This document shows positions 10,947 through 63,957 of a DNA stretch of 64,000 nucleotides, one piece after another (the stretch's first letter is position 1; every line of letters begins with the position of its first letter). The notes below the pieces were generated by a model. It saw only the letters and a program-made list of their open reading frames with translations. It was not told where the DNA came from and did no database searches. The stretch lies in contig NC_092320.1 in assembly GCF_036785885.1 (NCBI RefSeq), positions 17,733,557 to 17,797,556 of the forward strand, in the 5' to 3' direction. Made by a program: the position numbers and the translations under genes. This DNA is from Coffea arabica. Its lineage: Eukaryota; Streptophyta; Magnoliopsida; Gentianales; Rubiaceae.

Positions 10947-10965
10947 ATGGGGCTCCACAGTGTCC

Positions 10966-30286: not shown

Positions 30287-33200
30287 TTACAAGCTTCGGG
30301 CGACCTTTTCATACAAGTCACTAGGCCAGTTCCTGTTCACGTTATTTGCAAGGAAGTTTGCTATCTGCAGAATAATAATTAAAAAGAAAATCCATCAGGT
30401 AATAAAATTTGACGTGATAAAAAGGAAAACGGAAAACAATTGCATAGGCATAAACGCCCCAAATGAAACAATTCATTGAATCTCCATATGTTGAAAGTGT
30501 CCTTTAAGAAGTGTCTGCGACTCTGCCTAACAGACTCACCTTATAACTTCGGCTTCAGCCTTATATGTTTCAAGTTTGTGGAGATTCTCATCCAATTCAC
30601 ATTCACCAGAGCACAGTTATGCCAAATCAAAAAATGCTCAAATTTCTAAGTTTAATGTTCAGGAAACATTTTAGTTAACAACACGCTTAGCTACCTTTCC
30701 ATTGCAAGAAAGAGTGGAGGAATATAGCAGACTACAAATAAGTTGATTATTCAATTTGGAAAAACCTGATTATCCACTGGGTGAAATTGTAGATCAAATG
30801 CATTCAAGAAAGCCGAAAATTATTATCAAACTAGCACTTCTCACTGTATGGTATTCAATGCATATCTGCCTACAGGTGTCATCTAGAAGCCACTTCTACA
30901 ATGCGGCAAACAAGCAATCGGTAACCAATTAAAACCAATGTCTTTTCACTACATGTATTTTCCACTGAACAAATTTATACAGACTTTAAAGCACATCGCA
31001 AGTGAACTTGCTTGCAAGCTGAATATGTCAGTATGCTAACCATGTAGGAAAGGAGGGAAGTCCAAAAGCAAAATATAAAATTCATCTTAGATACACGACA
31101 AACTGAAAGCAAAAGGAGACAGATTACAGGAGTAAAACAGGACATCAATATCAGAAACATACCTTCGTTCTCAAGGCACGAAGCGAACCATCTGTATCTT
31201 TGACATTGTCCAAACAATGAAGAGCAACTCTTAGAAGGTCAGGCACACAAGTTTGGACATAAGGGGATAGATTATTAAATACGTCAGAGGCAAAATCCGG
31301 TGCTCGGGGATCAAGAGGAAGAAATGGAAGTTTTGCTACCTCCCTCAAAGCATCTAAATAATGTCCCACCCTCGCAAGCTTATGAACACACAAGATTGCC
31401 TCAAGCTGTCTTAACACAGTTTGCTGTTCCATAACATTCTCTCGCTCCTGAGGACTGCAAAGCAAATATTCTATAGAATTAAATTACTCCAAAAACAAAA
31501 TATTCAAACAACATAATTAATGAAAAAGTTTGCTTCTTTAACACGGTTATTCTTAACAATGCATGTACTCGGACAAAATTTTCAGGAGAAATAACATCAC
31601 TCCAAAAAAAATCCCCTGACCGGTGCCTTATCTAATACCTGATCTCTGGATGATACTTAAATGCCTCCAAAATATCATTTCCGGAATGAATGAGCCCAGA
31701 AGTCCTGCTCTCACCGTCCAATCTACCAAGTGATAGGGCACAAATTGCTTCAGACAGGCACTTGTTGACTGTCTCCAGAGCTCCAGAGAATGCCCCAACT
31801 CTCTTTTGAATCTCTATGGACTGAGTTTGAAGGAAAATAAGTGTGACAGAGAAACGTAAGCATTAAACCAATAAATGCATAGCTGAGCAAAAATAAATAA
31901 AAATAAAACATCATAACCGTAAATGAGAATCCATGTAATGATAGGTCCAAAGAAGCAAAAGCTACAGGAAACAGCAGAAGAAAATAATTCCACAAATCTT
32001 TCAAACAGGTATTCTTTTGCGTGACCTAATTTTAAGACTGAAATCAAATACTCTGGTCGGTAAAGAATAAGTTTCTTCAGATTTTAGCAAAACCAAAACG
32101 ACTATAATGTCTGACGCAGAAGTGCGTTTGGATATCTAGCATAGAGAAATTAGGTGATTATCAATTAATAGCAGCCAAAAAGCTACAGCATGCAAAATTC
32201 CAGAGAAGCTATCAAGCAGAAATACAACATAATGGAGACTGGAAATGCTAGGTCATCTCCAAGGACCAAGACGAAGCATTGCCCCATTGCTCTAATGACC
32301 TTCCTCGAACAGATTCAATTACAAAAGATGAACAAACTTCTCATAAACTCTCATGTAATGTGTTCATGATACTGCTACATAATCATCACGTGAAGTATGA
32401 AAATTCTAAAGAAGAAAATAGAAAAATTTTACACTTGAGTGCAATAGCTAATCAATATAAGAGACAATATTTTGAGTGCATTAAAAAGGAATAATCACGA
32501 AAAGTGGTACTCAAAAGAAGCTTAAACCAAGCCATTACTGGGTTTAACCTGAAATGCCATGAGACGGTCTAAGGGCATCTGAATGCCAGCTGAATACAAA
32601 GAGATAATGAATCATACTTGCCTCCCACATTGCCACCTCCTTGTGTTAATAACAGAGAGGAATATACATGGTCCTTTGACAGAGGAACCTCATAAACAGA
32701 GGTCCAACATTAGATATCTATTTTAACCCAGTGGCCTACTGGAATAATTTATTTCCTTTTGTCTTAAATATTCTACTTATCCAAGGTCGTGAATGCATAA
32801 AAGTCATCCTAGCTCGCAGCAAAGGATATGTACCCCAAAAATAAACTCAACCAAAAAGACTGGGCAATGTCCAAATTTGAGAAAAATTCAAAGAAAGAGG
32901 AATCCATGGAAGTAATAAAAAGATAATTATTTCTCTATTGGATGATTACACATCCATTTGAAAAGAAAAATTAGCACCATCATCACTATGATCAGTCCAT
33001 ACTGTCCCATTACCTACCAAGAATCTAAAAGCAACTGGGATTAGAAACACGGTGTCAACATGTAAGGGGGGAAAAAACTGTGGATTGCATGAAACCGAGT
33101 ACTTCCCTTTTTAATTCTAAGACCAACTGGACTAAACTTGTATATTTGTAGCACAATGGAACTTTCTGAATGTGCTAAGATAACTAAATAACACAGTTAA

Positions 33201-36200
33201 TCTGCTCCATCTACTGATCACCATCTTAGACAGCAGTGCATGGGCAAATTTTGACAAATGAGTTCTGCACAACCCGCTAAAATGCTTACTAAGTGTGAAA
33301 GAAGAAAGCAAGAAAAGAAGTATTACTTTGTCATACAGCCCAGTATCCTGACACTGCCGCGCAGCCTCAAGCAGAAACTGTTGCCTTGTCTTTCCATCAG
33401 TGAAAAATCTGCCAAGTTGACCTTCTTCTCCAGTACCTCTTGGTCCGAGCAGAAGATAAATACCACCATCATGTAATAAAAGTTCTGTAAAAAGTTGCTT
33501 CAACATCAAGGTCCTCTGCCGCTGCTGATCTATACTACCTCTTCCAGTCCATGAAAGCTCACCACCACCCACTGCAGCAGCAGCCTGTGCATAGTACTCT
33601 AGTGCCATTGACAGGTCACCGTTCCGTAGATAAGCAGATCCATACTGCCTAATTATGCTAGAAGCCTCTGCACAAGCATCCATCACTCCAAATTTTTGAG
33701 CAGCCCCAGCACCTTCAGAAAGGACCTCATGGTCAGCGAATACTATATTTATGTGGACAGAATCAATGCCATATCCTTCATCTCCTATATCCTTGGACAA
33801 ATAAAGGACTGCTGGAAGCAGCTGAATGCTCAACAATAAAACATATGGATACACCAGAGGATCCTTTCCATTCTTTGTATAATATGAAGGTTCAAACTTA
33901 TTTAGGTAAGCCTGTAAATCTTCCAAAGTGTAGGGTGAGAATCCCTCATTAAGAACAGCAGAAGATGAACCATCAGACCATTCATGTATAGCAGACAACT
34001 TGAACCACAAGAAATCCTCTATGGTATTGAAAAGTGTGGGTTGCTCTCTAAGCAGTCTGTCTATCAGCCTGCGAGAACCAGATATGATGGCATACAGAAC
34101 TAATTTTTTCTTGTCATATGAAGCTCGGCCAACTCTATCACCACTCCTCAACAATTTTTCACACTCTTCAGAGGCAGCAGCCACGGTCCTAGGCGATACG
34201 AGACTGCCAGAGGCAATCCACTCAGTGAGCTGTCAGGATAAGTCAATTATTAATACAAATGAGCCATTAACAAGTACTACAGAAGCAATGAACAATTAAA
34301 CAATTTACCAGAGGAGCAAAGTGGTGTGCAACACGAGATGATTGGGCAACTTCTTGCGCTTTATCATAGTACCCAGTTCTCAAGCAAAAGTATATCTGTA
34401 CATACACACAACAAGAGAAACGGTCTGAGAGAAATTGTTTGAACAGATACCCAATATGGTTAGTTATTTGGAATACTATAACCATGTCAAACAGTTTTAA
34501 AACAGCTAACAGATGAGAAAAACCAAAAATGGTGCAGATAATGCTGTATGCGAAGCAAGGGTTCAAAGAGAAGAAACAATTTTCCCATTTACTTCTAGTT
34601 ATCACTTTTTTAACTTGAAGCACAATTCATGCAGACACCAAAAATTTCTACATCTTCCTTTGGGAACAATTAGGGAACAAATAAAATAGCTTAGACAGAG
34701 GTATCTGAATAACTAGAGATTAAGCAAACTGGCATCTATGTACAATTGAGCCATGTTTAAATCCAGCATGATAACAATTGAAGAAAGATCCGTGGCAAAA
34801 CTACAGATAATATATTTTCACAAAAGTTCTGGTGCTTGTACAAATCCTAGCTCATAATCAAAGTACGATCTCTTTTTTCCCTTTATTGCTATCCTGTTTT
34901 CCATGTAGTTTACATGAGAACTGCTGGGCAAAACAAAAATAAGGGAAGGTGATGTCTGTTTGAACAAAGACAAATTAAAAACTGCATAGACAGCTGTTAA
35001 CTGCCTTACAGATAGAATTGTGTCTGCCAACAGCAATGAACCACACACATTTGATTGCATGGAAAATAAATGCTTTCTCACATGGTTTTCAGCAACATCT
35101 AGAAGAACAAGAAAACATAATAAAAACCTGCTGCCAAGTGGTATCAATGGGAGGCTGTCTACGAGCATCATCCGCATCAAAGTCAAGGACACCATAATCC
35201 CTTAAACGAATCTGCAGAGACTAAATTATTGAGCATAGGAATATTCTCAAGGGCAAGAAAGCCAGTTATATTACAACTTGGAGTCTTAATTATTACACAA
35301 TGAAAAAGTTACAGACCCTCAGGAAGGCTCGAATTCGCTGCAAATTATCAACAGCTCCACCAAGAGAAGCCTACAATGAAGATAGTCTATAAGCTTGAGA
35401 TTAAAATTGGCATTTATGCATACTACTACAGTTACTTGTAGACATAATAAACCCCAAAACATTTAAAGCCATAAAAAGCCTTCAGATGCTAAACGGAGTG
35501 CCACAAGTATGTCTTGTCTGCAGCCACCACTAAAAATAATAGAATGAAACTGCAAGAGATCAGTTGTCAACTGGATCACTTGTAATCCCTGTTTCTGATC
35601 TAAAGGCAACAACTGCTCGCAACACGTAGAGGCTTTGACTCCATAGGCAACATCCACCCAACTAGCAAATAGTACTATAAGTATATTGGAAGCTCAGAAC
35701 CTGGCTCCTCGAACTCCAGGAGAGCTTTCATGGGATTAAGATCCTTTTCATTCTTGTAAAATGCAAAACAAGCAGTCAAGTATAAGGTGAACCATCGAAT
35801 GCAAATTTCTCCAACATAAAAATATCTGCCAAAGCAGGATAACTAATATAGATACTGCAGATAGATCCCATAATGATCTAAAACCGAAGCTCCATGACCT
35901 TATAGTTGTGATTGATAAAAAACTTGAGCTACCGAGTGTCCACACATGTATACATAAAACGAGGAAATTGGGCAGTATGCTTGTGGACTTCTCAGGATGT
36001 CAAGTGCACGACAAAGTACTACGTACATTCTAGGGAGGACAATTAACCTCGTTTACAACACAGTTGTTTCTTATTTGGTTTTCTAGCATAGACAATAGTA
36101 TCCACTTGAAAGTTTACTTGGGGGACTCATGCAGAAAACTCGAGAATCTAGCAGGAGCTGACCTTTTATGTCAATTACCAATACATGACATATAATCTAT

Positions 36201-48070: not shown

Positions 48071-50124
48071 GTATAAACTACAGGTATTTGCATCTGTTTT
48101 GCGGTCTGCGACTAATCACGTTCGAATCGGATCGGATCGGATCCCTTGTAGAAGAAAACTCTTCCAATGTTGTCATTTCCATTTACACGAGTTTCGAACC
48201 TAAAATCTCATGATTAAAATATGTAAGCCCGTTCTACTTACACTAACATCTGTTGGTACCAATGGTTGTGAATCGTAATAGTTATTTGAAATATGGAAAA
48301 ATGCATAGAACATCATAAAAATAAAAATAAGAATGGTGATAGGTATTTTTTGCAGAAATAGGAACATATGATAGGATACTCTGATCTCAATTTTCTACCG
48401 GAGATGCTTAATAACATCATCAAGTTTGTCAGAGTTTGTGCAAACAGGATAGTTCAATCTATGATGGACCTAAAATCATCAATCGTATTATTAACTGATT
48501 ATTCTATAGGGTGGTATATCTCTGTCAATGATTTCAGGGCAGAAAAACGTTTTGTTTATCAACTCTAAAAGAAAGTTAACCTAATCAGCAAAAGAAACTA
48601 ACATGCGGGTAATGCTTATTAGCATTGGGACGCAGGAGTAATGCAATTAGATAACAAACACTTGATCCCAAATTGATTTACAACTAACATTAAGATATTT
48701 ATTTACAGCAAATGAATGGCCAAAAATGGAAAAAGAGGAACTTAGCGGACTTGCACATTAACTCAATCTATATTTATCTAAATTAAGTCTGAATATTGAT
48801 AAACTTTTATATTCAGTATTAACTAGATAATGCAAGCGAAATTGCGACATTTAATTACGAGAAATAAAGGTTACACATGAATTACCATATAAGGATGAGA
48901 ATTGTGAAATTTATTCACAAAATAATAGGACCACGAGAGATTTTGTTGAAGAAATAAAAGGGGAACCATTTTGTTATTGATTTGTACTTTAGTCGTATAG
49001 TTATGTTTCTTAGTGTTAATCATACACTAAAAAAGTGGTTAATTATGTTAAATCCCACTAAAGTATACCTTGATCCTCATTTTATCCTTGACCTTTTATT
49101 TCTGTCACTTAAATCATTTTTTATACCCAACTATCTCTCTATTATTGTACTTTTTCTTCGTCTTCTCTATTCTTTTTCCTTTACCTTTTCTCTTCCTTTG
49201 TCATCTTTTTTCATTTTTTCCCTTTCTTCTAATTTTGTCATTCATTCATAAATCCTTCATGTAGTTGAGGGATTCTCAAAAATCTCAAATAATTTAGGGC
49301 TAATATATAATTTTCTTTTACTTAATCCTCCACTTTGCTGGTCTTCTCCTCTTTGCTATGATTAGAAGGGGAAAAAAAAGAGAAAATCATACAGCTAGAC
49401 TAGGTGGGTTGCTATTATTATCACTAGATTATTCTTTGCTGCAGTTGCAACCCATGCCTAAATTCTTTTTGTTTTTGTTCTCTTTAATCTGCCTCATCTG
49501 AAATATCATTATTAAACATTATTTAAAAAGTACTCTAAAAGTACTTTAAAGAATAGTTTAATTTTTTTTAATGTTTAAAAAATATTTCAAAATACATTTT
49601 AAAAACTCTACTACTCTTAAATATTCCAAAATATTTTCTAAAAATATCCTAAAATATACTCTAAAAACTCTGCTATAGTAATTTTTTTTAAAAACGCTCC
49701 TAAAAATAGCTAATCTAAACGGACTTATTCTAGCAACTAGAAGGGAGCGGTGGTGGGGGAGGGGGAAGGGAGAAGAAGAAGAGAGGAAAGAAAAGGAAAA
49801 AGAAAAAAATAATTTCCATCAAAAAAAATTTTCTTACAACTTCTACAGTAAAATTTTAGCTAAACGCCTAAAAAACTCATTTGTCAAATGGACCTATGTG
49901 TTGTAACATAAATATAGTCAAAGAATTGAATGTATAAATTGCATAATACAATTTTGAATTCCCTTTCAATCTCCCCCAAATTTTTTGTTCTACTCCACAA
50001 TTGTGTGGATGTCGAAAAAATTTAACCAATCCCAAAAAATTTCAAATCGCTTTGATCATGTGTTATAACGTTTAAAGTAATTTCACTTAAATCATAATCA
50101 ATGTTTAGAATTGAACTTAAACCA
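47534..50124. other. AT-rich spacer left of the Helitron, with microsatellite and SINE-like patch
   Basis: A TA microsatellite lies at about 48027-48067. About 48100-48265 on the minus strand has a tRNA-like B box (AGGTTCGAAACTCGTG at 48201-48186) and may be a SINE remnant. 49100-49260 is a pyrimidine-rich run and 49735-49810 a purine-rich run. The Helitron's 5' end may lie in the last few hundred bases; A/TCTCCCCC at 49969/49970 is one unproven candidate. Confidence 0.35.
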
Positions 50125-50330
50125 TGAATTGAACTTTGTCCGACAAGTTTAATATTAAAACGTGTTTAATATTATCAAATGTCTTTATATTATCAAATTA
50201 AACACATTTTGTATTATCAAACATTTTGTTTATATTATCAATTGTTTAAGTAAAATGTATTCTGGTTTTTAATATAAAAAACCATCACTTGTGTTTAAGG
50301 GGTTTCTAATATAAGGATAACCATCTATAT
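50125..50330 (+). repeat. 5'-side copy of the Helitron subterminal repeat
   Basis: Shares GTTTAATATTATCAAATGT, AAATTAAACACATTTTGTAT and AAGTAAAATGTATTCTGGTT with the three units at 62300-63900, in the same orientation, with more divergence. Confidence 0.8.
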
Positions 50331-51228
50331 ATTTATTTTAAAAAATTGATAAATTGATAAAGCTAATAGGCATTAAAAAATATCTAGAATTATGGTGGAT
50401 ATAAGAGAACAACTAGATAAATTTATATATTTATTAAGTGATAAGTGATAAGTGGATATATTTTTTTTATATGCATATGTGATAAACATGAGATATACTT
50501 TATTCCTCAATTTTGACCAAAGAGTTCAATCATGTGTCATAGGGGTTAAATCACTTGTCTCCCACTACCATCTATTTTTTACTGTTTTAGTCATTCTGAT
50601 GCTTATTTTGTGGACCACTTTCTTCCTAAGGTTGGCTATATTTGTCATTTCCAGATTCTTTGTCTCGATTTTGCATATTTCTTGTTTTTTACTGATCATC
50701 GATGAATACATTGGCACCAGAGATTTCATGCAAACAATTTGCTACGTTCAAAAAACCAGTTTACATGCAAATTACAGCGCATCTTGCATCTTACAACTTG
50801 CTTCATACAGCTTGCTTCGAATCAGGTATTTTCTTATGCTAATCCAAACTTAGTTCACATGAGTTTTTCAGCTGTTCCATGCAACTAGAAATTTCTTTTA
50901 TTTTAATCTGTACTGAGGTGCTCCAATTTCTTATAATACGCAGTAGCAGAGATACTTTGATAAGCTTCGTCTGCTGTCTCCATGGAGGTTTTCTACTCTC
51001 TTTCCTTCGTTCAACTGGTTTTTTATTGTTTTTTAATATATTTAGTTCATAGCTCATTCCATCTGTACTGATAGTCTTCATCCTTTTTAGCTGAATAGTT
51101 TGTTCCTTGCACATCACCACTTATATACCTATCTATCGATATATATATAAACAATATATATCTGTCCATACGCATAGATTTTCCTCTGTCTATCTTTGTT
51201 TGTTGCTTGGTATATATGTATAAAAAAC

Positions 51229-54200
51229 ATGAGCTGCTCCAAGCTATCCATAACGGATGATCCTGATAAACTTCGTGAGAAAAAGGATAAGCGAAATCGT
51301 AAAAAAAGAGAAAAATTTGCTGCTCTATCTGTCGAAGAGAAACAGGCTCAGCGCAAAAAAAACAGAGAAGCTTATCACAGAAAAAAATTGGAGAAAATAC
51401 TTTCCAAGTCCTTGCCACAACAATTTCAAGAAGCTTCTCAATCACCAGTTTCTGCATCTGTTATCCGTAGCCTTTCTCCTCAACAATGTTCTCATGGTAC
51501 ATAGTGATTCAAAAACTCTTACTATATTCTCATAATCTGTATGTGCATAGCATATTTATCATAACCTGTCTATTTCCCTTATTTTGTTGATGACTAGCTT
51601 TGAATGATAAAGTTATCCAAGCTATTGGTTCTCAAACTTCCAAACTCAATGAGAATGTTCATGGAATTATTGGTTGTAATCAAGGTTAGTCATAGAATTT
51701 TTTTTCCCTTTACCAACTTTTCTTAGAATTCCAACCCCTACTTTTGTATATATTGAATTGCAAATTTTTCTACCTGACTTTCAGGCGATTCACGCAGTGA
51801 ATTCTCACACTCTCATTTTACAGAACACTTTACAGGTACCATTTCTATCTACTTTAAATCAATGAATTCATGTCAACTTAGTTGTATATGTATTAGTGTT
51901 TCTTGCTATATTGTAGTAAATTAGACTGTGCATTGTTTGTTATCCAATCTGAATTTCATTTTTTTTATAATATTCATGCAACCAATCTGAACTCTGTCTA
52001 TTGTAATAGGTGCTCCAAAACCTGGTATTCGGATTTCTCCCTCTGCAAATAACAGTGATGAACTAGCTTCTGCTCAGTTGGGTAGAAAATTAAAGGAACA
52101 GATTTCTTGCTTCTCAAGCTATGAGAAAGGTACATGGTGTACTTTGTTTTTGATATATCTTTCCTACTCAAATCATAAACAGTATTCTATTGATACAATA
52201 CTCCATCTCTAATTTTTATACGTAGGATCTGCTTCTAACTGTGGTACACAACATACATGCGTAGCTACTGACATGCTGCACAATGCAGGTGATTTAAGCT
52301 TCGAAATTAATCATTGATTATTGCTTCTTATATATAACCATCAACATTATCATGATCAGTTATATTAGTATTCTTGTTTACTTTTCAGATAAATCATTCA
52401 TATGCATGAACTGCTACAAATTCTTGACAGAAATAGCTGAACAAACTTCAGGTCAAATGTTCTTTGAGCTTTTTAAAAAAATTCCTTCTGCGATTGTGTC
52501 TAACAATTCCATGAACTTTACCTTGAACAGATTTGTCAGCTATCCTCCCAATGTACCAGCTGTATCAAGTCCCTGATAATTGTTCTGCTAAAACAAGAAG
52601 AATTGCAGGTTATTAGCTTTGATCTGAATTTACTATCTTGTATATAGAAAAACTCAAATTACCATATGAGCTGCTTGACGATTCTCATTTCTCACTATTG
52701 TTTCTTATTTCTCACTCAAGTTTCTTATTTCTCACTATTGTTGTAAACTAATTTGCCATAAAAAATCCATCAAATAACCATCTCATTAAAATATATTAAA
52801 TTGTTTAATTGCTTCTGATGTTGATCAGAAAACTTCAGTATGCATTATGTAACCTCAAACCACTTCTATTCATACAAATACCTTGATCATATTACTACCA
52901 CTACATGTATAAAGCTTATGGCTTCTGCTTCTAATTATATATACTTGAATCATTCAGGCAAAAAGCATTCATCAGCGAAACAAGTGAAAGCTATTAATAA
53001 CAAAAAGAAAAAAAACAGAGGTACAGATTACAAATCACTGATTGTTCCTCTTTTACCTCCTTATGTTCAGTTCCAACCTTTAGTTTAGCTGAACTAATTG
53101 CTAAATCTATAGGTAATCAGCCTGTTGATGGAGTTCATGCACTCAAATTTATTAATCATCAGGCAGATAGATTACCTGCAAAAGCTGATTGTCAGTACTG
53201 TGGAGGGAAAAAAATGCACTCTGAGACACCCAATTTCTGTTGCTCAGACGGACAAGTAGTTCTCCATGAGAATAAATTGCCAGATATTCTTGTAGAATTG
53301 TTCACTGGTCATTCTGATGAAGCTTTATCCTTTCGTACATATGTCAGAACATATAATAATATGTTTGCCTTTACTTCCTTTGGTGTACACTATGATAAAT
53401 CACTTTGCAAGAGAACAAATGGCATTTATACCTTCAAAGTTCAAGGACAAAGCTATCACTTTATCAAAGACCTTATTCCACATGGAGGATCTGGATTATA
53501 TCTGCAACTGTATTTTCATGATACAGATCATGAGCTTCAAAACAGAATGGCAGTTTCAGAAAGATTAACAGAGAGTATAGTAATGAAGATCATGGAAGTC
53601 ATGAAGTCTAATCCATACGCATGTTTTCTGCGCAGTCTAAGAAACGTTCCAAATTTGGATTCATATCAGATAGTCCTGAAATCACATTCACAGAATGATC
53701 AACGAGTATTCAACCATCCAACAGCTTCTCAGGTTGCAGCTCTTTGGACAGAAACAGAGAGTTCAGGAACAAGTTATGCTAGACACATTAAAATTTATAC
53801 AAAAGAAGGAAGGGATCACCTCGTCCAGTACTATTATGGCTGTTACGATCCTCTCCAATATCCACTATTATTTGCACTTGGTGAAACAGGCTGGCATCCT
53901 GGAATCAGAAGATTTGTCAGAGAAAATGCCAAAAAGAGAAAAAGATCTGTTCAGAGAAACAAACCTACTGCTGTCCTCACCAATTTCAAATCTGCTGAAG
54001 ACATGATATCTGCTGAAGAAGAAGGTATTCCTAAGATGAATAACTAATACATTATCTATATGCAAATGTCTTATACATTACTTATGTACATTGCTCACAT
54101 CTTGCTTACATAATTACTGATCCTGAATTACTTGTTTTGAGAACATACTACTCGCATTATCTTCGATTAGTCTCACATGATCCTATATCTTATCAATGTA

Positions 54201-57200
54201 TGCAACTTCATATAGTGAAACCAGTTACTTATACCTTATTTTTGTAACTTTCAGTTTCCAATGATCCTGAAAACAATGGTGAATTTGTGTCAATGCGAGA
54301 ATATTATGCTTATAAATTGCAGATCAGAGACAAATATTCTCCAAACATACTTAACACTGGTAGATTACTTCAGCAATATGTTGTGGATATGTACATCAAA
54401 ATTGAAAGTCAGAGATTGGATTACTATAAAAGCAAACAAGAATTCATAAGGAGAGAGCAGCTGCAAGGCGTAATGGATAGTGTTATAACAGGTCAATGCC
54501 AAGCTTCAAAAGTAGGCCAACGAGTAGTCCTTCCAGCTTCATTCATAGGAGGCCCTCGAGACATGAAAAGGAGATATGTTGATGCTATGGCTTTGGTCCA
54601 GAAATTTGGCAAACCAGATTTATTCATTACAATGACTTGCAATCCTTCATGGCCAGAGATAAAGAATCTCATGCTTTCAACAGATGAAGCACATAACAGG
54701 CCGGACCTGCTCACTCGAATCTTTCACGCAAAGCTTGATGTTTTAAAACAGGAGTTATTCAAGAAAGAAATATTCGGATCTGTTGCTGCTTACACATATG
54801 TCATAGAGTTCCAGAAACGCGGTTTACCTCATGCTCATTTCCTTATAATTCTGAAGCCATGTTCAAAACTTTACTCGACAGATTCTTATGACAGAATAGT
54901 TAGTGCAGAGATTCCAGATGAAAGCAAAAATCCACATCTTTTCAACATGGTTCGCAGACACATGATTCATGGCCCTTGTGGAAAAAGAAATCCAACCAAT
55001 GTTTGTATGCGAGGAGAACATCAGAAAAAATGCAGGAATAATTATCCAAAACCATTTGCCGATAAGACTTTTCATGGAGATAACACATACCCTACTTATC
55101 GAAGAAGAAACAATGGATACAAAATGATGGTCCGTGGACATGAGCTTGATAACAGATGGGTTGTTCCATACAATCCTTACCTTCTTGCAAAATTCAACTG
55201 CCATCTGAACGTGGAAATCTGCTCTACAGTCAAGGCAGTAAAGTACATGTATAAGTATATCTACAAAGGTCATGACAAGATTCATTTTGTACTCAATTCA
55301 CAGGATTCTAATCAGCTGAATTCTGATGGTCATGTCTGTGCAATCGATGAGATCAAAGACTATCAATCGGCTAGATGGGTCTGTGCTGTGGAAGGTATAT
55401 GGAGAATATACAGGTTCCTGCTGTTTCAAATACATCCTGCTGTTATTCACTTACAGCTTCACTTACAAAACTGTCAAGCATTGAATTTCAGAGAAGACCA
55501 AGACCTACGTGATATAGTAGCAAATAGATTTGCTAAGAGAACCATGTTGACAGAATTTTTCTACATGAATTCTACTGATTCTCTAGCTCAGAATCTCAAA
55601 TGTACTTACAAACAGTTTCCTGAGCACTTTGTTTGGTATCCAGGAAGGAGGAAATGGGAACCAAGAAAGCAGAAAGACTCTATAGGTAGGATAGTAACAG
55701 CCAACCCAATGGAAGGAGAACGATACTTTCTCAGATTGCTACTCACAAATGTCAAAAGTCCAACTTCATTCGATGACTTAAGAACAATAAATGGAGCATA
55801 TGTACGTACTTTTCGGGAGGCAGCAATTCTCAGGGGTTACTTTGAGTCTGATAAGTCACAACAACAATGCCTTCAGGAAGCAGCTATGTATCACATGCCA
55901 TATACTTTGAGAAGATTATTTGCCACACTACTTGTTCATTTTCCTCCTTCAAATGCCAGGTATCTTTGGGAACAATTTGAAGAGCCATTATCTCAAGATA
56001 TCAGCAGAACTCCACAAGTATCAGTTGATCAAATTCGTTTCCAGGTACTGTACCAGATAAATCAGTTCCTACAATCAATGGGAAAAGATATCAATGAGTA
56101 TGCTTTAGTTCCAAATATCATGAATTTTGATAGCTTGAACAACAACACTCGTGATATAATAGCTGAAACAACAATCTCTGTACCAGAGCATGACTTATTA
56201 GCAATTGAACAATTAAATGCTGATCAGAAAAAAGTTTTTGATATTATTATAAATGCAGTTTTTGTTGAAAAAAAAGGAGCCTTTTTCATTGATGGACCAG
56301 GCGGAACAGGAAAAACATTCCTTTATCGAGCACTACTAGCAGAAATCAGGTCAAAAGGACACATAGCTCTGGCTACAGCATCCTGTGGAGTTGCGGCTTC
56401 GATTCTTCCAGGTGGAAGGACAGCTCATTCAAGATTCAAGATACCAATTAGTGGAACACGAGATAAGCAATGCAGAATTAGTAAACAAAGCTCATTAGCA
56501 AAACTGCTGCAATCTGCAATTCTGATCATCTGGGATGAAGCTCCAATGACACACAAGACTTCAATTGAGAGTGTTGACAAAATTCTCAGAGACATAATGG
56601 ACTGCAACAATTTGTTTGGATCAAAGGTCATTGTTTTTGGAGGTGACTTTCGTCAAGTCTTGCCAGTAGTAACAAAAGGATCAAAATCTGAATTTATCGA
56701 TGCAAGTATAGTGAACTCATACATATGGCCACAGCTACATAAGTTGCATCTGACTCAAAATATGAGAGCAAGATATGATGCAGAATTTACTGAATATCTA
56801 CTCCGCATCGGAAATGGAACAGAGCCATTTATCTCCAAGAATTCTATCCAGATACCTGCATCAATGCTGATAAGATATACCAATGAGGAAGAATCAATGA
56901 ACACATTGATCCGCACAGTGTTCCCAGATTTGAACGCTTTTTGCCAGGACAATTTCTCTGCAATTAATCGTGCTATTCTGACAACAAAAAATGACTTTGT
57001 GGATCAAATTAATCAGAGGCTCATTGTACAGTTCAAAGGACAATTGCAAGAATATACCAGTCGAGACAAGTGTATAGATAGCTCTGAGCAGACAATCATG
57101 GAAGATTTGCTAAACAGTTTGACTCCAAATGGTTTCCCTCCTCATAAGCTGCTTCTCAAACCATACTGCCCTATCATGTTACTGAGAAACATCGATCCGC

Positions 57201-57622
57201 CTCAGGGATTATGTAATGGCACCAGGCTGATATGCAAATCCTTGAGCTCCAACATTATACATGCAGTCATAACATGTGGAGAATTTGCTGGAAAAGAAGT
57301 CTTCATTCACAGAATCTGTTTTAGAGCAGAGAATAATTCAGACTCACCAGTATCATTCGAACGAATTCAGTTTCCTGTTCGACCCTGTTTTGCTATGACA
57401 ATAAACAAAGCTCAAGGACAAACACTTGATTTTGTCGGCATATATTTGCGTGAGCCGGTTTTCTCCCATGGACAGCTATATGTAGCAATGTCAAGAGCTA
57501 AGAATAGTAGTTCTATTAAAATTCTGATTAAACCATCAATATTTGACGACCAAGAAGACTCAATTACTGAAAATATAGTATATACAGAAGTACTAGATTT
57601 AGCTTATCAATCACTGTTCTAA
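51229..57622 (+). CDS. Helitron Rep-helicase transposase
   Basis: Rolling-circle transposase. Exons by frame and GT-AG sites: 51229-51496, 51598-51684, 51785-51835, 52010-52129, 52226-52288, 52389-52451, 52958-53020, 53113-54024, 54255-57622 (sum 4995 nt, 1664 residues). The N-terminus is basic (NREAYHRKKLEK). A zinc finger spans 53190-53240 (CQYCGGKK...FCCSDG). Rep motifs: 1 TMTCNPSWPEI (about 54630); 2 the HUH box GLPHAH (54820-54840); 3 the two-Tyr box KYMYKYIYKGHD (about 55240-55276). The PIF1-type helicase has Walker A GPGGTGKT (56295), Walker B IIWDEAPM, FGGDFRQVLPVV, INKAQGQTLD and YVAMSRA. ATG 51229 is the first in frame; upstream frame opens at TTG. Introns between the small exons all split codons at phase 1. 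Confidence 0.88.
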
Positions 57623-57714
57623 CCATTTGTATATCAGTTATTTGTATATATTCATGATTTTACACCTTTCTTTCGCTTCATCCAGCACTTAGCTACTTAT
57701 ATTATGAGTTGCAG

Positions 57715-59826
57715 GAGGAAAAAAATATCATCTCATTTGCTGAAATAATTCCTGGACTACAAAACTGGACAACTATGGTTCAGGTTCTAGACAAGCAAAA
57801 GCCATTACTCTCAAAGGCAGGAAACCGATATCAGAAGCTCATATTAATTGATGAGCAGGTAATACAAATTCTCAATTTTATGTCATGTTCTTTATTACTC
57901 AATTTTGACATTGACATCAAAACAACCATGACTATTCTCAGGGGTCAACAGTTGAAGCAATGATTTATAAATCAGACATTGAGTTCTTCCGAAATCATTT
58001 CCAACTTTACAAGCGATACATTCTCTGCAATGCTAGAGTTGAGTACACACCATCAGAGTATTCCACTCATCCAAATCAGTGCACATGGTACATAGACAAC
58101 TCTACTGTTGTTCAAGCAGTGAATGAAGTCGAGCCACCTCAGATTCCAGCTGTGTTCAGATTCTCACCCTATAGAAGATTCTACCAACATATGGATGACA
58201 ACACAGATATAGGTAACCAACAAATCTTACTACTAACTTGCTACTGCACACATTATAGTTATAACTCAGCACAATTGAAAATCAGATGTCCTAGGCATTG
58301 TCGCTGAAGTTCATCCTCGGATACAAAGGGCCACTACAGCTACTAGAGAAGTGGTACTTATAGATAAAAGGTAACTAAAACTATCCATTTATTCTATATC
58401 AGTTCTAAACCAGCACACATTGATACAAATAATCTCTTCTAACAAATGTTCATCTATCAATCAAATACACTACAGCATGATGCCAGTTATCCTAACACTA
58501 TGGGGTGAGCATGAAACAGATGAAGGCCAAGCACTTGCAAATATAATTGACACAATGCCACTGATTGTTGCACTTCGGATTAAAGTATCATCATATCACA
58601 GTGAGTATATAAGAAATTTCTTATGCTCCACATATTTTCTGACTTTGAACATACTGAACCTGGTAAATATTGCAGCACGTAAATTGAACATACTGAACCT
58701 CGTAAATTGAACATACTGAGCCACGTAAATATTGCAGCACTGAACCTGTCAACAAAATTTGGATCAAGCATTCTTCTCAATCCTCCAATACAACAAGCTG
58801 CTGATCTCAAGCACTGGTGACAATTCTTCTCAACAAACATCATTTGAAAATATTTTCTATTAACTGCATATTATAAACATTGTAAATAAAACTTCTCTAT
58901 TCATCACAAGGGCTATTGAGAATGAAGCAGAAATCAAAAAATTGATAGCAGAAAAAGCATACCACAACCGAGTTAAGCTTCTACCACAGCCAAGGGATGA
59001 CGAGCTGACCACTATTCAAGACTTCCTGGCATTTCCTACGGTAAATTCTACAACCCATCATTTATACACAATAATATTTTCAGATTTCTAACTACTCACT
59101 ATAATTCAATACAGAAAAAAGCTTACTGGTTGCGTGGTACTCCAAAATTGCTAGACAAAAGCCAGCGATTATGGTATAATGCTTGTCCACAATGCCATAA
59201 ATCATTCAGAGGAAAGCCTATCTGGAAAATTGTTTGCACCTCATGCAACAAACATGTGAATATAGTGACAAGATCTCGATTAACTGTAGAACTTGCTGAT
59301 TATTCTGGAGTTTTAACGCTTGATCTTTATGATAATGATGCCCTTCAGTTACTACCTTTCACACTTTCGCAGATGCAAGAGTTAGAAAACAAGGTAAGAA
59401 ATACTGTTTCCATAAGCATATAGAATATTGTCATCAACAAATAAGTATACTGTATCTAATGTCAACCTGTTCATTTTAATTGTACAGCATGAACTGAACT
59501 ATCAAGCTATTGAAGAGGCCATTAACAACACTATCATAACATGCTTTGTGAAGAAAATGCCAAACACCCATGCATCTGGCAGTACTGAAAAATACTCTGC
59601 CATTATTCTGCACAAATCCCTTCTAGCAGAGATTATATCACAGATTCCTTCAACCACTGGCTATTCAGAACCAAATCCAGAACTGCCTTCCACCAGTATT
59701 GATGAAAATGTGGTCAGTACTGCTCCAAAAGACACAAATGTGACTTCCAGTTGTCTCTCTACTCTTAAGATCAGTGAGAGCCCAACTAAAAAGCAACGCA
59801 GTGACAAGTATCAAAAGCAAGATTGA
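57715..59826 (+). CDS. Helitron-encoded RPA70-like single-strand DNA-binding protein
   Basis: OB-fold protein thought to coat single strands during Helitron replication. Exons: 57715-57858, 57942-58212, 58286-58370, 58476-58600, 58738-58816, 58911-59040, 59115-59393, 59488-59826 (1308 nt in frame, 435 residues). Blocks: FAEIIPGLQNWTTMVQVLDK (first OB fold), ATTATREVVLIDKR and VILTLWGEHETDEGQ (second), LSTKFGSSILLNPP. The C-terminal domain has a Cys4 zinc ribbon, ACPQCHKSF...IVCTSCNKH (about 59175-59250). The tail is Ser/Thr rich and ends KKQRSDKYQKQD. The first coding exon is uncertain; no ATG in frame precedes 57715 closely, so an upstream mini-exon or the Met at about 57774 may serve as start. 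Confidence 0.8.
58644..58740 (+). repeat. Short tandem duplication spanning a splice acceptor
   Basis: TTGAACATACTGA occurs three times (58644, 58684, 58707). The segment GTAAATATTGCAGCAC occurs at 58663 and 58725, so the acceptor of the fifth RPA exon is duplicated. Confidence 0.85.
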
Positions 59827-60545
59827 AAATGCCATATATTGGTTTTTGCTATTACATACTTTTGAAGCTCTGCTGGGTTAACTTTTGATAGCTGAAGCTT
59901 TCCTGTATTTTGTGATGGTCAAATATTTTACCAGCTTTTGTACACTTGCTTAGCTTTCTGTTCACTTTTGCTTAAAGATAGTTAGCTAAGCTTTTTGAAA
60001 GTGCAAACGTACCACAGTATCATGTATAACTTTTGATTTGTACAACTTGGCTACTCAACTTTCTATCCTTTAACGTTTCGTTCATCAAGTGTTAGTATAG
60101 TTTGTGATTTGCAAATATTTCAGCAGATTTTGTACAGTTCAGCAACTTCCCCTACATTCTTATTTAAACATTGTTACCTCCGCTTTTTCAAAATCCAAAC
60201 GTACCAGAATTTCATTTATAGTTATTAACATTTGCATCACAGAAACTAATCTCCCTTCACTCCCTTTCTTTTGCTTTGTGCTATCAGTCAAAGCTGATTC
60301 GATATTTACAATCATTTATTCATTGCACCTTCATTTCCAAAACAGCCAAACACCATACTACAATGGAACTGATTACCACCTCACCAAATACAAAAACAAA
60401 TACACCAGGTACAAATATTATCCAACTAAAGTTGCTAAACACAGTATCTAACCACCAACTTAGACATGGAATACACTAGAGTACAACAGCAAACATTTCC
60501 ATAATACAAATCATAAAAACTCATAAAAACATACATAGCTATCCG
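59827..60545. other. Spacer between RPA gene and antisense ORFs
   Basis: No coding frame. It has a diverged internal duplication: 59925-60035 and 60113-60230 share TTTTGTACA, CAAACGTACCA and TCAT-TATA-type blocks in the same order. It should hold the 3' UTRs of RPA and of antisense ORF A, which converge here. Confidence 0.45.
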
Positions 60546-60920
60546 CTAGAAATTTCTCCCAGCTGCATCAGAAAATCCACCCATAGCACTTTCAATTGCT
60601 TTCCTCTGCTCTTCAACTTCTACTTCCATACGACCAGCAATTATCTGCAGAAACGGCAATTCTCCAATATTTCCTAATGTACTTTCCAGCACACGAGCTT
60701 TCTCTGGATGCCGATAAAAACATTTGAACAAATCATATATCTCATTCCTAAGTAGAATATTATTTGCTAAAACTCGATCTGCACCCCTCAACATCCCATT
60801 ATCTTCAGTATGGCCAGGCAAATTTCCCCGCACATCACTTAGTGATAACCGATTGAACATAACCTCAATACCTGGATGCAAATCACGCAATACTCCAATA
60901 CGATTATCAGTGTAACTCAT
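60546..60920 (-). CDS. Helitron antisense ORF A, 124 residues, unknown function
   Basis: ATG at 60920 (MSYTDNRIGVLRDL); the longer open frame upstream has no ATG. Core NNILLRNEIYDLFKCFYRHP, then ARVLESTLGNIGELPFLQII, AGRMEVEVEEQ, and a short C-terminal tail (AMGGFSDAAGRNF). It is paralogous to ORF B at 61656-62027. It is charged, with no membrane segment, signal peptide or Cys/His finger; predicted by eye to be mostly helical. The minus strand shows CTATATAAA at 60986-60978, about 60 bases upstream of the ATG, a possible TATA box. I do not recognise the family. It could be a DNA- or protein-binding accessory of the Helitron or a captured host fragment. Confidence 0.6.
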   Translation of the reverse strand: MSYTDNRIGVLRDLHPGIEVMFNRLSLSDVRGNLPGHTEDNGMLRGADRVLANNILLRNEIYDLFKCFYRHPEKARVLESTLGNIGELPFLQIIAGRMEVEVEEQRKAIESAMGGFSDAAGRNF

Positions 60921-61655
60921 CTTAAACCAAGAAAAAATCACAAACACAAATCACAATATACCAACCAAACTAACAAATTTATATAGAACAAGTACATCAT
61001 AAACCAAAAACAGACAAATACAAAAAACAAAAATATACTGTAGACATGTGAACCAAACAATAATAACAAACACATATATACCAGACAAAAAAGCACTATA
61101 CACACGTGAATCCCCTACTCTTTCTACGAACCAAAACAAAAGCAATCAATAGTCAACCTGTCTCATTACATTGTCCAAACATCTATATATGTGTTGCATG
61201 GAACAGCTGAAAATTAAGCAATCCAAACATCTTCAAACACAGACCTCTATCAATTTTATCATATCCAATCCAATATCCTACAATTATTCACCATTCATTA
61301 GTTCCAAATCTTATAGATAAACATCAGATAATATACTTCATTTTATTACGCATTTAATCCAGATGCAAATTTTCATACACATTCATCAGTTTACAGATAC
61401 AAATCTGTAAACACGTTCAATTCACAAGCTTTGCTTATTACTTTGCCGCATTTGTATATTCTTGGCAAACACAAGACACTCATACAAATCAAAACATTAG
61501 TACTTTATACAACAGACAGAAATACATATGACGCTACTTTATGTAGCAAATACACGATTATCATATCCTTCAGAAACTGACAAACACATCTTAATGCTTA
61601 AAAACCATACGCCAAACACCAAACTAACAAACACATTTTCCCAAACTCCAACTCC
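60921..61655. other. Spacer between antisense ORFs A and B
   Basis: AT rich with A-rich plus-strand runs; probably the promoter of ORF A and the 3' UTR of ORF B. No coding frame supported. Confidence 0.4.
60978..60986 (-). promoter_or_regulatory. Possible TATA box for antisense ORF A
   Basis: CTATATAAA on the minus strand, 58 bases upstream of ATG 60920. Confidence 0.4.
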
Positions 61656-62027
61656 TTAATCACTTTCGCCGCCCATGTCACTAGAAGATGGCGGACTGGG
61701 AAAGTAATACTTTTCTTCTAACACTTCCACCCTCATCCTGTTGGCAATCAACCCCAAGATAGGATAGCCTCTTCCAGTCCTAAGCGCAGCTTCCAAAACT
61801 GAAGCCCAATCATGATGCCTGTAAAGCTCTTTAAACAAATCACACAATTCATTTTTCAGCAAAACATTTGCCACCTGAGCTCGTGCAACCGGTTCTGCCG
61901 GACGATTCCGACAGCCATTTCCCATAGGATAAGCTGCTCCACGAACAACAGCTAGCTGATTAACCTCTTCGTCCACCTCTGGATAATATAGTTGAACAGT
62001 GGGAAATCTTGCGCTTCCGCTCGCCAT
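61656..62027 (-). CDS. Helitron antisense ORF B, 123 residues, unknown function
   Basis: ATG at 62027 (MASGSARFPTVQLYYPEV); the two codons before it open only at GTG. Core VANVLLKNELCDLFKELYRH, then WASVLEAALRTGRGYPIL and LIANRMRVEVLEE aligns without gaps to ORF A, with roughly half the core residues identical or alike. The C-terminus is Ser/Pro rich and acidic (SPPSSSDMGGESD). It has the same length and strand as its partner and is opposite to Rep and RPA. A TATATATTT box lies about 35-42 bases upstream. Conservation of the core between two diverged copies, both free of stops, argues for selection. Function unknown. Confidence 0.6.
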   Translation of the reverse strand: MASGSARFPTVQLYYPEVDEEVNQLAVVRGAAYPMGNGCRNRPAEPVARAQVANVLLKNELCDLFKELYRHHDWASVLEAALRTGRGYPILGLIANRMRVEVLEEKYYFPSPPSSSDMGGESD

Positions 62028-62059
62028 TTGCACACACTAACTATCTACAGACAAGTACC

Positions 62060-62069
62060 AAATATATAC
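62060..62069 (-). promoter_or_regulatory. Possible TATA box for antisense ORF B
   Basis: GTATATATTT on the minus strand, 33-42 bases upstream of ATG 62027. Confidence 0.4.
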
Positions 62070-62299
62070 TACTTCTCCCTATATCACCTTCAACTATGTA
62101 GGGAACAAACAATACTACACCCGTGAATTCCTGTACTTTTTACCCTCCTCCTACCCTGCAAATTACACGTCTGATACCACCTGCACACCAAAACATCTAG
62201 CTCCTATCCAAATGTCAAGACCAGATATATTCTAACACCGTCAACTAGCTGCCTTTCTACGCTAATACAACACGTAATAAGCATATAATAACTCAAACA

Positions 62300-63920
62300 T
62301 ATTATAAACATATAAAATATAAATACTAATATATAATTTAATTTAATAAATATAAAATATAATACTAATCTATATATACTAATACTAATTCACATATAAT
62401 TTAATAAATTTACATATGCACAGCACTAATAATAAACTCAATTTCTAAAATGTCCAAAAAAATCAAGAATTTAATTAAAATATTTAATTTAAAAAAACCG
62501 GATTGCTCGATTAGTACCATAACTTTTCCGACAAATTAAATAAAATTTTTGATGTGTTTAAATTAAATCAAACGTTTAAATCAAATGTTTAGATAAAATA
62601 TTAAAACATGTTTAATATTATCAAATGTGTTCATATTATCAAATTAAACACATTTTATATTATCAAATGTTTAAGTAAAATGTATTCTGGTTTCTAATAT
62701 AAAAAACCATCAATTGTGTTTAACTAATTTGCTATATATTTATTCAAACAATCACTAATTGCATTCTTAAATAACTTTTTAAAACCATTTTATTCAACAT
62801 ACAGATACAAAACTTTAGTACAATTACACCCTCTAATATATAATTTAATTTAATAAATATAAAATGTAATACTAATCTATATATAATTCAATAAACCTAT
62901 ATACAAATATAATATATACTAATTCTAATTCACATATAATTTAATAAATTTACATATGCACAGCACTAATAATAAACTCAACTTCTAAAATGTCCAAAAA
63001 AAATCAAGAATTTAATCAAAATATTTAATTTAAAAAAACCGGATTGCTCGATTATAATTGAAATTGTCAAGTCATCCATACCATAACTTTTCCGACAAAT
63101 TAAATAAAATTTTTAATGTGTTTAAATTAAACCAAACGTTTAAATCAAATGTTTAGATAAAATATTAAAACATGTTTAATATTATCAAATGTGTTCATAT
63201 TATCAAATTAAACACATTTTATATTATCAAATGTTTAAGTAAAATGTATTCTGGTTTCTAATATAAAAACCCATCAATTGTGTTTAAGTAATTTACTATA
63301 TATTTATTCAAACAATCACTAATTGCATTCTTAAATAACTTTTTAAAACCATTTTATTCAACATACAGATACAAAACTTTAGCACAATTACACTCTCTAA
63401 TATATAATTTAATTTAATAAATATAAAATATAATACTAATCTATATATAATTCAATAAACCTATATACAAATATAATATATACTAATACTAATTCACATA
63501 TAATTTAATAAATTTACATATGCACAGCACTAATAATAAACTCAATTTCTAACATGTCCAAAAAAAATCAAGAATTTAATTTAAAAAAACCCGATTGCTC
63601 AATTAGAATTGGAATTGTCAAGTCATCCATAGCATAACTTTTCCGACAAATTAAATAAAATTTTTAATGTGTTTAAATTAAATCAAACGTTTAAATCAAA
63701 TGTTTAGATAAAATATTAAAACATGTTTAATATTATCAAATGTGTTCATATTATCAAATTAAACACATTTTATATTATCAAATGTTTAAGTAAAATATAT
63801 TCTGGTTTCTAATATAAAAAACCATCAATTGAACAATCACTAATTGCATTCTTAAATAAGTTTTTAAAACCATTTTATTTAACATACAGATACAAAACTT
63901 TAGCACAATTACACTCTTTT
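62300..63920 (+). repeat. Triplicated Helitron 3' subterminal repeat
   Basis: Three tandem units of about 520-560 bp. Each contains ATATATAATTTAATTTAATA (near 62325, 62838, 63400), CATATGCACAGCACTAATAA, ACCGGATTGCTCGATTA or a close variant, CTTTTCCGACAAATTAAATA, and ends CAGATACAAAACTTTAG plus ACAATTACAC. The first unit lacks one short block (AATTGAAATTGTCAAG) that the later two share. The third unit runs straight into the terminal hairpin. Confidence 0.92.
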
Positions 63921-63928
63921 ACCTAGCG

Positions 63929-63945
63929 CCCGCGCATCGCGCGGG
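63929..63945 (+). terminator. Helitron 3' hairpin
   Basis: CCCGCGC ATC GCGCGGG: a perfect 7-bp GC stem with a 3-base loop, eight bases before CTAG. This matches the subterminal palindrome that serves as the Helitron transposition terminator. Confidence 0.92.
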
Positions 63946-63953
63946 ACACCTCC

Positions 63954-63957
63954 CTAG
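63954..63957 (+). other. Helitron 3' terminus CTAG
   Basis: ACACCTCCCTAG followed by T (63958). CTRR end with insertion before a T is the Helitron rule. The remaining 43 bases to the window end are host DNA. Confidence 0.9.

What the first reader, a model, noticed from the sequence alone, without database searches (positions are those of the whole stretch)
60546..62027. Pair of paralogous small antisense genes inside an autonomous Helitron
Two open frames of 124 and 123 residues lie on the minus strand between the RPA gene and the 3' end. Their cores align gap-free (LLRNEIYDLFKCFYRH against LLKNELCDLFKELYRH; RMEVEVEE against RMRVEVLEE), while their ends differ. Each has its own TATA-like box. 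Plant Helitrons are known for Rep-helicase and RPA; a conserved two-gene antisense module is not part of that description as far as I know. It could be a regulator, a partner of the Rep complex, a silencing suppressor or a captured host gene. This is my leading candidate for an undescribed system.
Basis: partly seen in the sequence, partly recalled or inferred. Interest (0 to 1): 0.78.

Follow-up and report, generated by a model that had tools for sequence, protein, structure and literature searches.

The report
Conserved antisense helper genes in Helitrons
A group of plant jumping genes (Helitrons) carries two related small genes, on the opposite strand to its replication genes, that are kept intact by selection and match no protein family we could search, so they look like extra tools of the jumping gene whose job is not yet known.

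Summary
Two single-exon genes, A (60546-60920, minus, 124 aa) and B (61656-62027, minus, 123 aa), are homologous (BLASTP 2e-16, 33%) and lie inside a plant Helitron, antisense to and 3' of RepHel and RPA. In the window's own 1.2-Gb genome the module recurs. Of 32 RepHel hits at least 77% identical to the window's, 32 have A and 29 have B within 25 kb; all 68 module genes (of 118) with a scored RepHel within 25 kb are 3' of it and antisense. Purifying selection is clear: dN/dS 0.18-0.35 for A, 0.08-0.36 for B, against 0.07-0.19 for RepHel. No Pfam, PDB, viral or prokaryotic relative was found.

The module is optional: 0 of 87 scored RepHel hits under 69% identity have one in reach, and an A-only family has three copies about 99.7% identical. 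"Chance ORF" fails and "captured host fragment" is unsupported. I read A and B as Helitron accessory proteins with their own promoters, most likely partners of the transposition machinery, with anti-silencing as main rival; function is inferred. The window copy seems to lack the family's 5' end. Other plants could not be searched.

The parts
60546..60920 (-). Gene A (P0001), 124 aa, acidic (pI 5.6), predicted helical at low confidence; proximal member of the antisense pair
61656..62027 (-). Gene B (P0002), 123 aa, acidic (pI 5.4), predicted helical core at low confidence; distal member of the pair
60980..60985 (-). TATA-like match 65 nt before the A start codon; 24 of 24 A loci examined have one at -48 to -103
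   Evidence: no shuffle control
61100..61111 (-). Promoter box ATTCACGTGTGT (G-box core CACGTG) upstream of A; within 2 mismatches in 16 of 24 loci examined
   Evidence: box chosen by eye from these loci
62063..62068 (-). TATA-like match 41 nt before the B start codon
   Evidence: no shuffle control
62117..62128 (-). Same promoter box (1 mismatch) upstream of B; within 2 mismatches in 15 of 21 loci examined
   Evidence: box chosen by eye from these loci
53214..57622 (+). RepHel main exons (53214-54047 and 54287-57622): Helitron_like_N, PIF1 helicase, Pif1 2B domain. A short upstream first exon near 51229-51500 is suggested by eye only
   Evidence: exon boundaries by eye
57709..59826 (+). RPA70-like gene in several exons (Rep_fac-A_C in 59130-59423)
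   Evidence: exon boundaries by eye
62326..63929 (+). AT-rich 3' noncoding region with three direct repeats at 551-564 bp spacing; carries 9 TATTATCAAAT sites
63929..63957 (+). Helitron 3' terminus: 7-bp GC hairpin (CCCGCGC/GCGCGGG) and CTAG, followed by T
49978..63957 (+). Whole element as delimited here; the left boundary is where eight sister places stop matching, and is probably a truncated 5' end

Best explanation
A and B are accessory genes of a Helitron clade: two ancient duplicates of one small protein family without known relatives, transcribed convergently to RepHel and RPA, apparently from their own promoters, and passed on with the element. Shown: homology, element linkage, antisense arrangement, protein-level purifying selection, absence of matches in the libraries searched. 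Suggested by sequence: own promoters (a shared G-box element and TATA-like matches). Inferred: the proteins are small, acidic and probably helical, so they most likely work by binding other proteins rather than nucleic acid. I think most likely that they are helper subunits binding the RepHel/RPA transposition complex, or the host replication factors it recruits, and that they raise its efficiency without being strictly required. The separate promoter would let the helpers be made on a schedule different from the transposase.
For: Linkage: 32 of 32 scored RepHel hits at least 77% identical have A and 29 of 32 have B, and 68 of 68 linked genes are 3' and antisense. In 20 of 20 fetched loci, which were chosen by their A match, the order is RepHel, RPA, A antisense. 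Selection: omega A 0.18-0.35 in 8 pairs with upper 95% limits at most 0.65; B 0.08-0.36 in 6 pairs with upper limits at most 0.86 (the highest pair contains two broken copies); RepHelC 0.07-0.19 and RPAC 0.08-0.17 in 8 pairs each. At nucleotide level A and B are 83-91% identical to four sister loci where the A-B spacer is 65-79%. The trees of A, B and RepHel share the main groups; no formal test of congruence was run. A shared promoter box lies upstream of both genes in most close loci. The 26 proteins analysed have pI 4.8-6.8 and 23 of 26 have no basic run. In four of six pairs B evolves as slowly as RepHel (omega 0.08), which fits machinery better than an arms race.
Against: No interaction, expression or mutant data exist here. 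The A-only family (L021-L023, about 99.7% identical copies) has moved recently without B, and 113 of 150 scored RepHel hits have no detected module within 25 kb, so the genes are not needed for transposition as such. At larger distance B changes faster than RepHel (pN 0.35 against 0.13, window versus L024), and there its nucleotide identity (57%) is little above the spacer's (53%). AlphaFold models are poor (pLDDT 51.5 and 56.7) and give no fold match that can be trusted.
Confidence: 0.42

Rival explanations
1. Anti-silencing factors: A and/or B counter host DNA methylation or small-RNA silencing of the element, working like VANC of Arabidopsis VANDAL transposons, possibly through the repeated motif TATTATCAAAY that marks both noncoding ends of the window element.
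For: Optional, lineage-limited genes that seem to have their own promoter fit a host-facing role. TATTATCAAAY occurs 14 times in the window (0.22 expected), 12 of them in the element's two noncoding ends, all in one orientation, which resembles the arrayed VANC motifs described in PMC5735166 (passages read).
Against: The motif core is absent from the 3' noncoding region of the other 13 loci tested, and its orientation follows trivially from repeat duplication. The proteins are acidic and have no recognised DNA-binding domain. B evolves about as slowly as RepHel in four of six pairs. No homology to any Pfam family was found.
Confidence: 0.27
2. Copy-number or transcription regulators: A and B are repressors or antisense-transcribed modulators that tune RepHel/RPA expression. 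The convergent transcripts might themselves matter.
For: Convergent arrangement of the RepHel-RPA genes and A-B; 68 of 68 linked genes antisense.
Against: Selection acts on the protein, so an RNA-only role is insufficient. In two loci whose RepHel is 69-73% identical the B gene lies between RepHel and RPA, so the position is not fixed.
Confidence: 0.13
3. Passenger: a captured host gene, duplicated once, carried along without benefit to the element.
For: Helitrons are known for gene capture; the Mothra paper read a 96-aa reverse ORF of a rice Helitron this way (PMC4683698, passages read). 50 of 118 family members were not linked to a scored RepHel, so a host homologue among them is not excluded.
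Against: Selection on protein sequence across element families; no stop inside 31 of the 36 best genome matches to A (E 1.2e-31 or lower); and every member with a scored RepHel in reach has the same antisense placement.
Confidence: 0.06
4. Chance open frames or pseudogenes.
For: A single frame this long arose in 74 of 2000 simulations.
Against: Two such frames arose in 1 of 2000 simulations; homology, conservation and omega all contradict it.
Confidence: 0.01

Closest known systems
RPA-carrying plant Helitrons (e.g. Mothra and its sister family of rice, PMC4683698; passages and one section)
   Same: RepHel plus an RPA-like gene, 3' hairpin and CTAG; AT-rich repeated blocks; a 96-aa reverse-orientation ORF in the block nearer the 3' end is reported in the non-autonomous Mothra consensus
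   Different: That paper reads the reverse ORF as a captured fragment (APG6-like) that probably has no function, and reports no antisense gene pair in the parts I read. Whether the rice ORF is related to A or B could not be tested here (no rice genome at hand).
Xuan-Feng Helitrons of wheat (PMC13286980; abstract and passages read)
   Same: Plant Helitron family with RepHel transposase, hairpin and CTAG end, AT insertion preference
   Different: Described as driven by Feng8, coding for one transposase of 1676 aa; the word RPA does not occur in the main text. It suggests that plant Helitrons can move without a described accessory gene.
VANC anti-silencing genes of VANDAL transposons (PMC5735166; passages read)
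   Same: Extra genes carried by a plant DNA transposon besides its transposase; short motifs arrayed in noncoding repeats
   Different: No sequence relation seen: no Pfam hit for any of 17 members, but VANC itself was not compared directly. A and B are small and acidic; the arrayed motif was not found in other families carrying the module.
MuDR mudrB of maize (recalled; only a search listing seen)
   Same: A second element gene transcribed convergently to the transposase gene, of uncertain function (recalled)
   Different: Different transposon superfamily; no homology tested.
Other accessory genes of Helitron-like elements: OTU protease, endonuclease (recalled; only search listings seen)
   Same: Optional extra genes confined to particular lineages
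   Different: Those encode known enzyme folds; A and B match none of the libraries searched.

Membership tests
Helitron (RPA-carrying plant type) | RepHel protein: Helitron-type N-terminal domain and PIF1 helicase | tested here: met
   Pfam PF14214 E 1.2e-56 and PF05970 E 3e-74 in window 54287-57622
Helitron (RPA-carrying plant type) | 3' end CTRR preceded by a short GC-rich hairpin | tested here: met
   Window and 13 of 20 fetched sister loci: hairpin and CTAG beyond the last module gene; in 7 of 20 none was found there in the fetched stretch
Helitron (RPA-carrying plant type) | Insertion next to T at the 3' side | tested here: met
   Base after CTAG is T in the window and in all 13 loci with an end
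Helitron (RPA-carrying plant type) | 5' end beginning with TC | tested here: inconclusive
   Eight sister places stop matching at 49978, where there is no TC, but the six sister copies I fetched run on upstream of that point, four sharing one sequence and two another, so the window copy looks 5'-truncated and the family's 5' end was not located
Helitron (RPA-carrying plant type) | RPA70-like gene | tested here: met
   Rep_fac-A_C E 9.6e-10
A and B as members of one protein family | Significant sequence homology and separate orthologous clades | tested here: met
   BLASTP 2e-16; A and B rows form two groups at support 87-88/83-89, below the starred threshold of 95/80
VANC-type anti-silencing protein | Binding to arrayed short motifs and demethylation of own copies | not testable with these tools
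   Needs binding and methylation data; the candidate motif was not found in the other 13 loci tested
Any Pfam-A family | Profile match | tested here: not met
   0 of 17 members matched at E up to 1; P0001 and P0002 none at E up to 10
Known protein fold | Structural match to a solved structure | tested here: inconclusive

The most novel reading that the evidence does not exclude
A clade of plant Helitrons has evolved a dedicated, separately promoted antisense cassette of one or two small proteins of a new family that acts on the host or on the transposition complex (for example as the first Helitron-encoded anti-silencing or replisome-hijacking factor). The cassette can be lost, halved, or placed at a different site between Helitron lineages.
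Probability: 0.35. Interest if true: 0.8.

Novelty: new variant of a known kind. Interest (0 to 1): 0.58.

Why it matters
How Helitrons control their activity and deal with plant silencing is poorly understood, and the plant coding set that I know of is RepHel with or without RPA. A conserved, selected gene pair with apparent promoters of its own gives a concrete and testable extra component, and closely related elements in one genome offer natural comparisons (A plus B, A only, neither). If the proteins prove to be transposition partners or anti-silencing factors, they would be the first such Helitron accessory proteins in plants that I know of. That rests on eight Helitron-directed searches of an open-access library, of which I saw partial listings, and on recall; it is not a full survey.

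Tried and rejected
Chance frames: rejected by simulation, homology and omega.

Captured host gene: no support; all linked family members are in Helitrons, but 50 of 118 merged members had no scored RepHel within 25 kb, and only 150 of 996 RepHel candidates were scored, so that set is mostly unexamined.

Relatives outside the genome: viral contigs, bacterial and archaeal contigs and phages (only partial hits with best E 0.7) gave nothing. No plant database was available, so the question whether other plants have A and B is open.

Structure: two AlphaFold jobs on window proteins only gave pLDDT 51.5 and 56.7; Foldseek and VIA-align 2 rows for the B model are not interpretable; the profile search of PDB sequences found none. 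No known fold is claimed or excluded.

Repeat motif as a conserved binding site: the TATTATCAAAY cluster was not found in the 3' region of the other 13 loci tested and was dropped as general evidence.

A first impression that four sister copies had lost part of RPA was wrong for three (C2, C4, C19): their RepHel-to-A distance is longer, with extra DNA between RPA and A. The C9:46.44 Mb copy is shorter and its RPA C-terminal match was not found in the 3.4-kb stretch held.

Promoter box: the 12-mer was picked by eye from the loci in which it was then counted, and no shuffle control was run. In eight elements scanned, hits within 2 mismatches also occur at a few other places. In L017 (A) and L020 (B) the best match lies elsewhere and may be chance.

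Rows to beware of: the 'B' rows of L021-L023 and L025 and the 'A' rows of L037 and L038 are the other paralogue and were not used. Codons with stops were skipped in the omega counts; the B pair L018-L020 contains two broken copies.

Expression, small RNAs and polymorphism could not be examined.

Full report
Observation. Two ATG-initiated frames of 124 and 123 codons lie on the minus strand at 60546-60920 and 61656-62027. They align over 123 positions with 33% identity (E 2e-16); the score is 132 against a shuffled mean of 26.4 with sd 4.5. The core (residues 51-108) and the tail are significant on their own, the N-terminal 50 residues of the window pair are not. Synonymous sites between them are near saturation (pS 0.81; 0.90 in the core) while amino-acid sites are not (pN 0.48; 0.36), so the duplication is old and the protein has been constrained.

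Surroundings. The plus strand carries a RepHel gene (53214-54047 and 54287-57622; PF14214 and PF05970) and an RPA70-like gene (57709-59826; PF08646). The 3' end is a 7-bp GC hairpin and CTAG at 63929-63957, followed by T. Between B and this end lie three copies of a repeat at 551-564 bp spacing. Eight other places in the genome match the window's 5' region beginning at exactly window 49978. In the six of these copies that I fetched, the sequence runs on upstream of this point; four share one upstream sequence and two another; the window has no TC there. The left flank of the window matches, up to 49977, a stretch on C12 whose match to the right flank (from 63959) begins 442 bp further on. The window copy therefore looks 5'-truncated, or inserted with a target deletion; its RepHel frame is open.

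Recurrence. The genome in which the window lies (1.198 Gb, 131 contigs, unnamed) has 107 matches to A and 113 to B at E up to 0.001, which merge to 118 genes, 47 A-like and 71 B-like. The RepHel C-terminal query gave 150 scored hits of 996 candidates. Of the 118 genes, 68 lie within 25 kb of a scored RepHel, and all 68 lie 3' of it on the opposite strand; 50 have none in reach. Of scored RepHel hits at 77% identity or more, 32 of 32 have an A and 29 of 32 a B; at 69-74%, 1 of 31 and 5 of 31; below 69% (down to 54%), 0 of 87. These lists are capped, so absence means not found by these searches.

I fetched 20 loci chosen by their A match. In 20 of 20 the order is RepHel and RPA on one strand, then A on the other. 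B is found in 16, of which three are clearly broken (L011, L018, L020) and three differ at one end (L015, L026, L028); it is not found in the fetched part of L021, L022, L023 and L025; for L025 a B-like gene lies about 8 kb further on. A hairpin with CTAG closes 13 of the 20 beyond the last module gene. L021-L023 end about 0.83 kb after A, so they are A-only, and they are about 99.7% identical over 4.9 kb.

Further out, L038 has a RepHel 49% identical to the window's and a B-like gene in the same arrangement. L037 and L041, whose RepHel hits are 69% and 73% identical and lie 21 and 9 kb away, have B between RepHel and RPA, still antisense. L037 has a third, very divergent member on the plus strand (profile E 6e-12). 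L039, from a family with seven copies of a RepHel 70% identical, has RPA but no module in the 7.9 kb searched; L040 has neither a module nor a detected RPA in 8 kb.

Selection. By Nei-Gojobori counts, omega is 0.18-0.35 for A in 8 pairs of loci (upper bootstrap limits 0.36-0.65), 0.08-0.36 for B in 6 pairs (0.16-0.86), 0.07-0.19 for the RepHel C-terminus in 8 pairs and 0.08-0.17 for the RPA C-terminus in 8 pairs. The pairs are not all independent. At nucleotide level the genes are 83-91% identical between the window and L010, L012, L014 and L019, the spacer between them 65-79%; against L024 and L027 gene A is 66-70%, gene B 57% and the spacer 51-53%, so there the contrast for B is small. Trees of RepHel, A and B share the main groups; congruence was not formally tested. 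One incongruence stands out: B of L037 and L041 is 73% and 71% identical to the window's B, while B of L024, whose RepHel is closer (79%), is 47%. This could be exchange of the cassette or a rate change; I did not resolve it.

Promoters. A TATA-like match lies at -48 to -103 before A in 24 of 24 loci, and at -41/-42 or -73 before B in 14 of 21. A 12-mer, ATTCACGTGTGT, with a G-box core, occurs within two mismatches upstream of A in 16 of 24 loci and upstream of B in 15 of 21; in 14 of the 16 A loci it stands 126-128 nt before the TATA-like match. Upstream of A it is missing (3 or more mismatches) in L021-L028. The box was picked by eye from these loci and no shuffle control was run. If real, it suggests that the duplication included the promoter, or that both genes answer to the same host factors. 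That G-boxes bind bHLH and bZIP factors is recalled knowledge.

What the proteins are. None of 17 members matched Pfam. No relative was found in PDB sequences by profile, in viral contigs, in prokaryote contigs or, beyond partial hits at E 0.7 and above, in phages. The 26 members analysed are acidic to near neutral (pI 4.8-6.8), and 3 of 26 have a short basic run. AlphaFold with two sequences predicts helices but with low confidence (pLDDT 51.5 for A, 56.7 for B), and structure searches with the B model gave nothing to rely on.

Mechanism. Shown: Helitron-borne, antisense, selected at protein level, optional. Suggested: separately promoted. Inferred: protein-binding helpers. I prefer partners of the RepHel/RPA complex because B is as constrained as RepHel in four of six pairs and because the genes follow RepHel almost without exception within the clade. 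The main rival is an anti-silencing role, which the optional and lineage-limited spread also fits; the window's motif arrays invite comparison with VANC (PMC5735166, passages read), but the motif was not found in the other 13 loci tested.

Literature. Ten searches of the open-access library were made; eight concerned Helitrons, one VANC and one MuDR. The listings that I saw, several of them partial, showed no description of an antisense gene pair in plant Helitrons. The nearest is the 96-aa reverse ORF of rice Mothra, read by its authors as a captured fragment (PMC4683698). A wheat Helitron shown to be active is described with a transposase only in the passages I read (PMC13286980). Subscription papers and sequence databases of plants were out of reach, so 'undescribed' is provisional.

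Noticed in passing
window 50151-50299 and 62597-63831: A block with three TATTATCAAAY sites occurs once in the 5' noncoding region and three times in the 3' repeats, same orientation; 14 sites in the window against 0.22 expected.
   Followed up: partly
G000 C2:36.979-36.980 Mb, C19:47.912 Mb, C4:8.4229 Mb, C9:46.4456 Mb: Sister copies carry extra, near-identical pieces of the element's own 5' terminal region (query 3979-4336) between RepHel/RPA and gene A, judged from distances.
   Followed up: no
window 49978; L042 (C12:16767500-16768300): Left boundary of the window copy lacks TC; C12 carries similar flanks with 442 bp between them, which hints at a target deletion or 5' truncation.
   Followed up: partly
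G000 C8:526510, 543436, 560362 and C16:746964, 755530, 764096: RepHel hits exactly 16,926 bp apart, and 5'-region hits exactly 8,566 bp apart, which suggest head-to-tail Helitron arrays.
   Followed up: no
L037:4979-5362 (+): A third, very divergent family member on the RepHel strand, convergent with a B-like gene (profile E 6e-12).
   Followed up: partly
L037, L041 versus L024: B of loci with the more distant RepHel is closer to the window's B than is B of L024, which suggests cassette exchange or a rate change.
   Followed up: partly
window 10371-15118: Frames that look like a LINE element with endonuclease and reverse transcriptase (by eye; not searched).
   Followed up: no
window 20111-21415 and 23927-25066; 33132-34184: Two F-box-like genes and a nucleoporin-93-like gene, judged by eye; not searched.
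   Followed up: no
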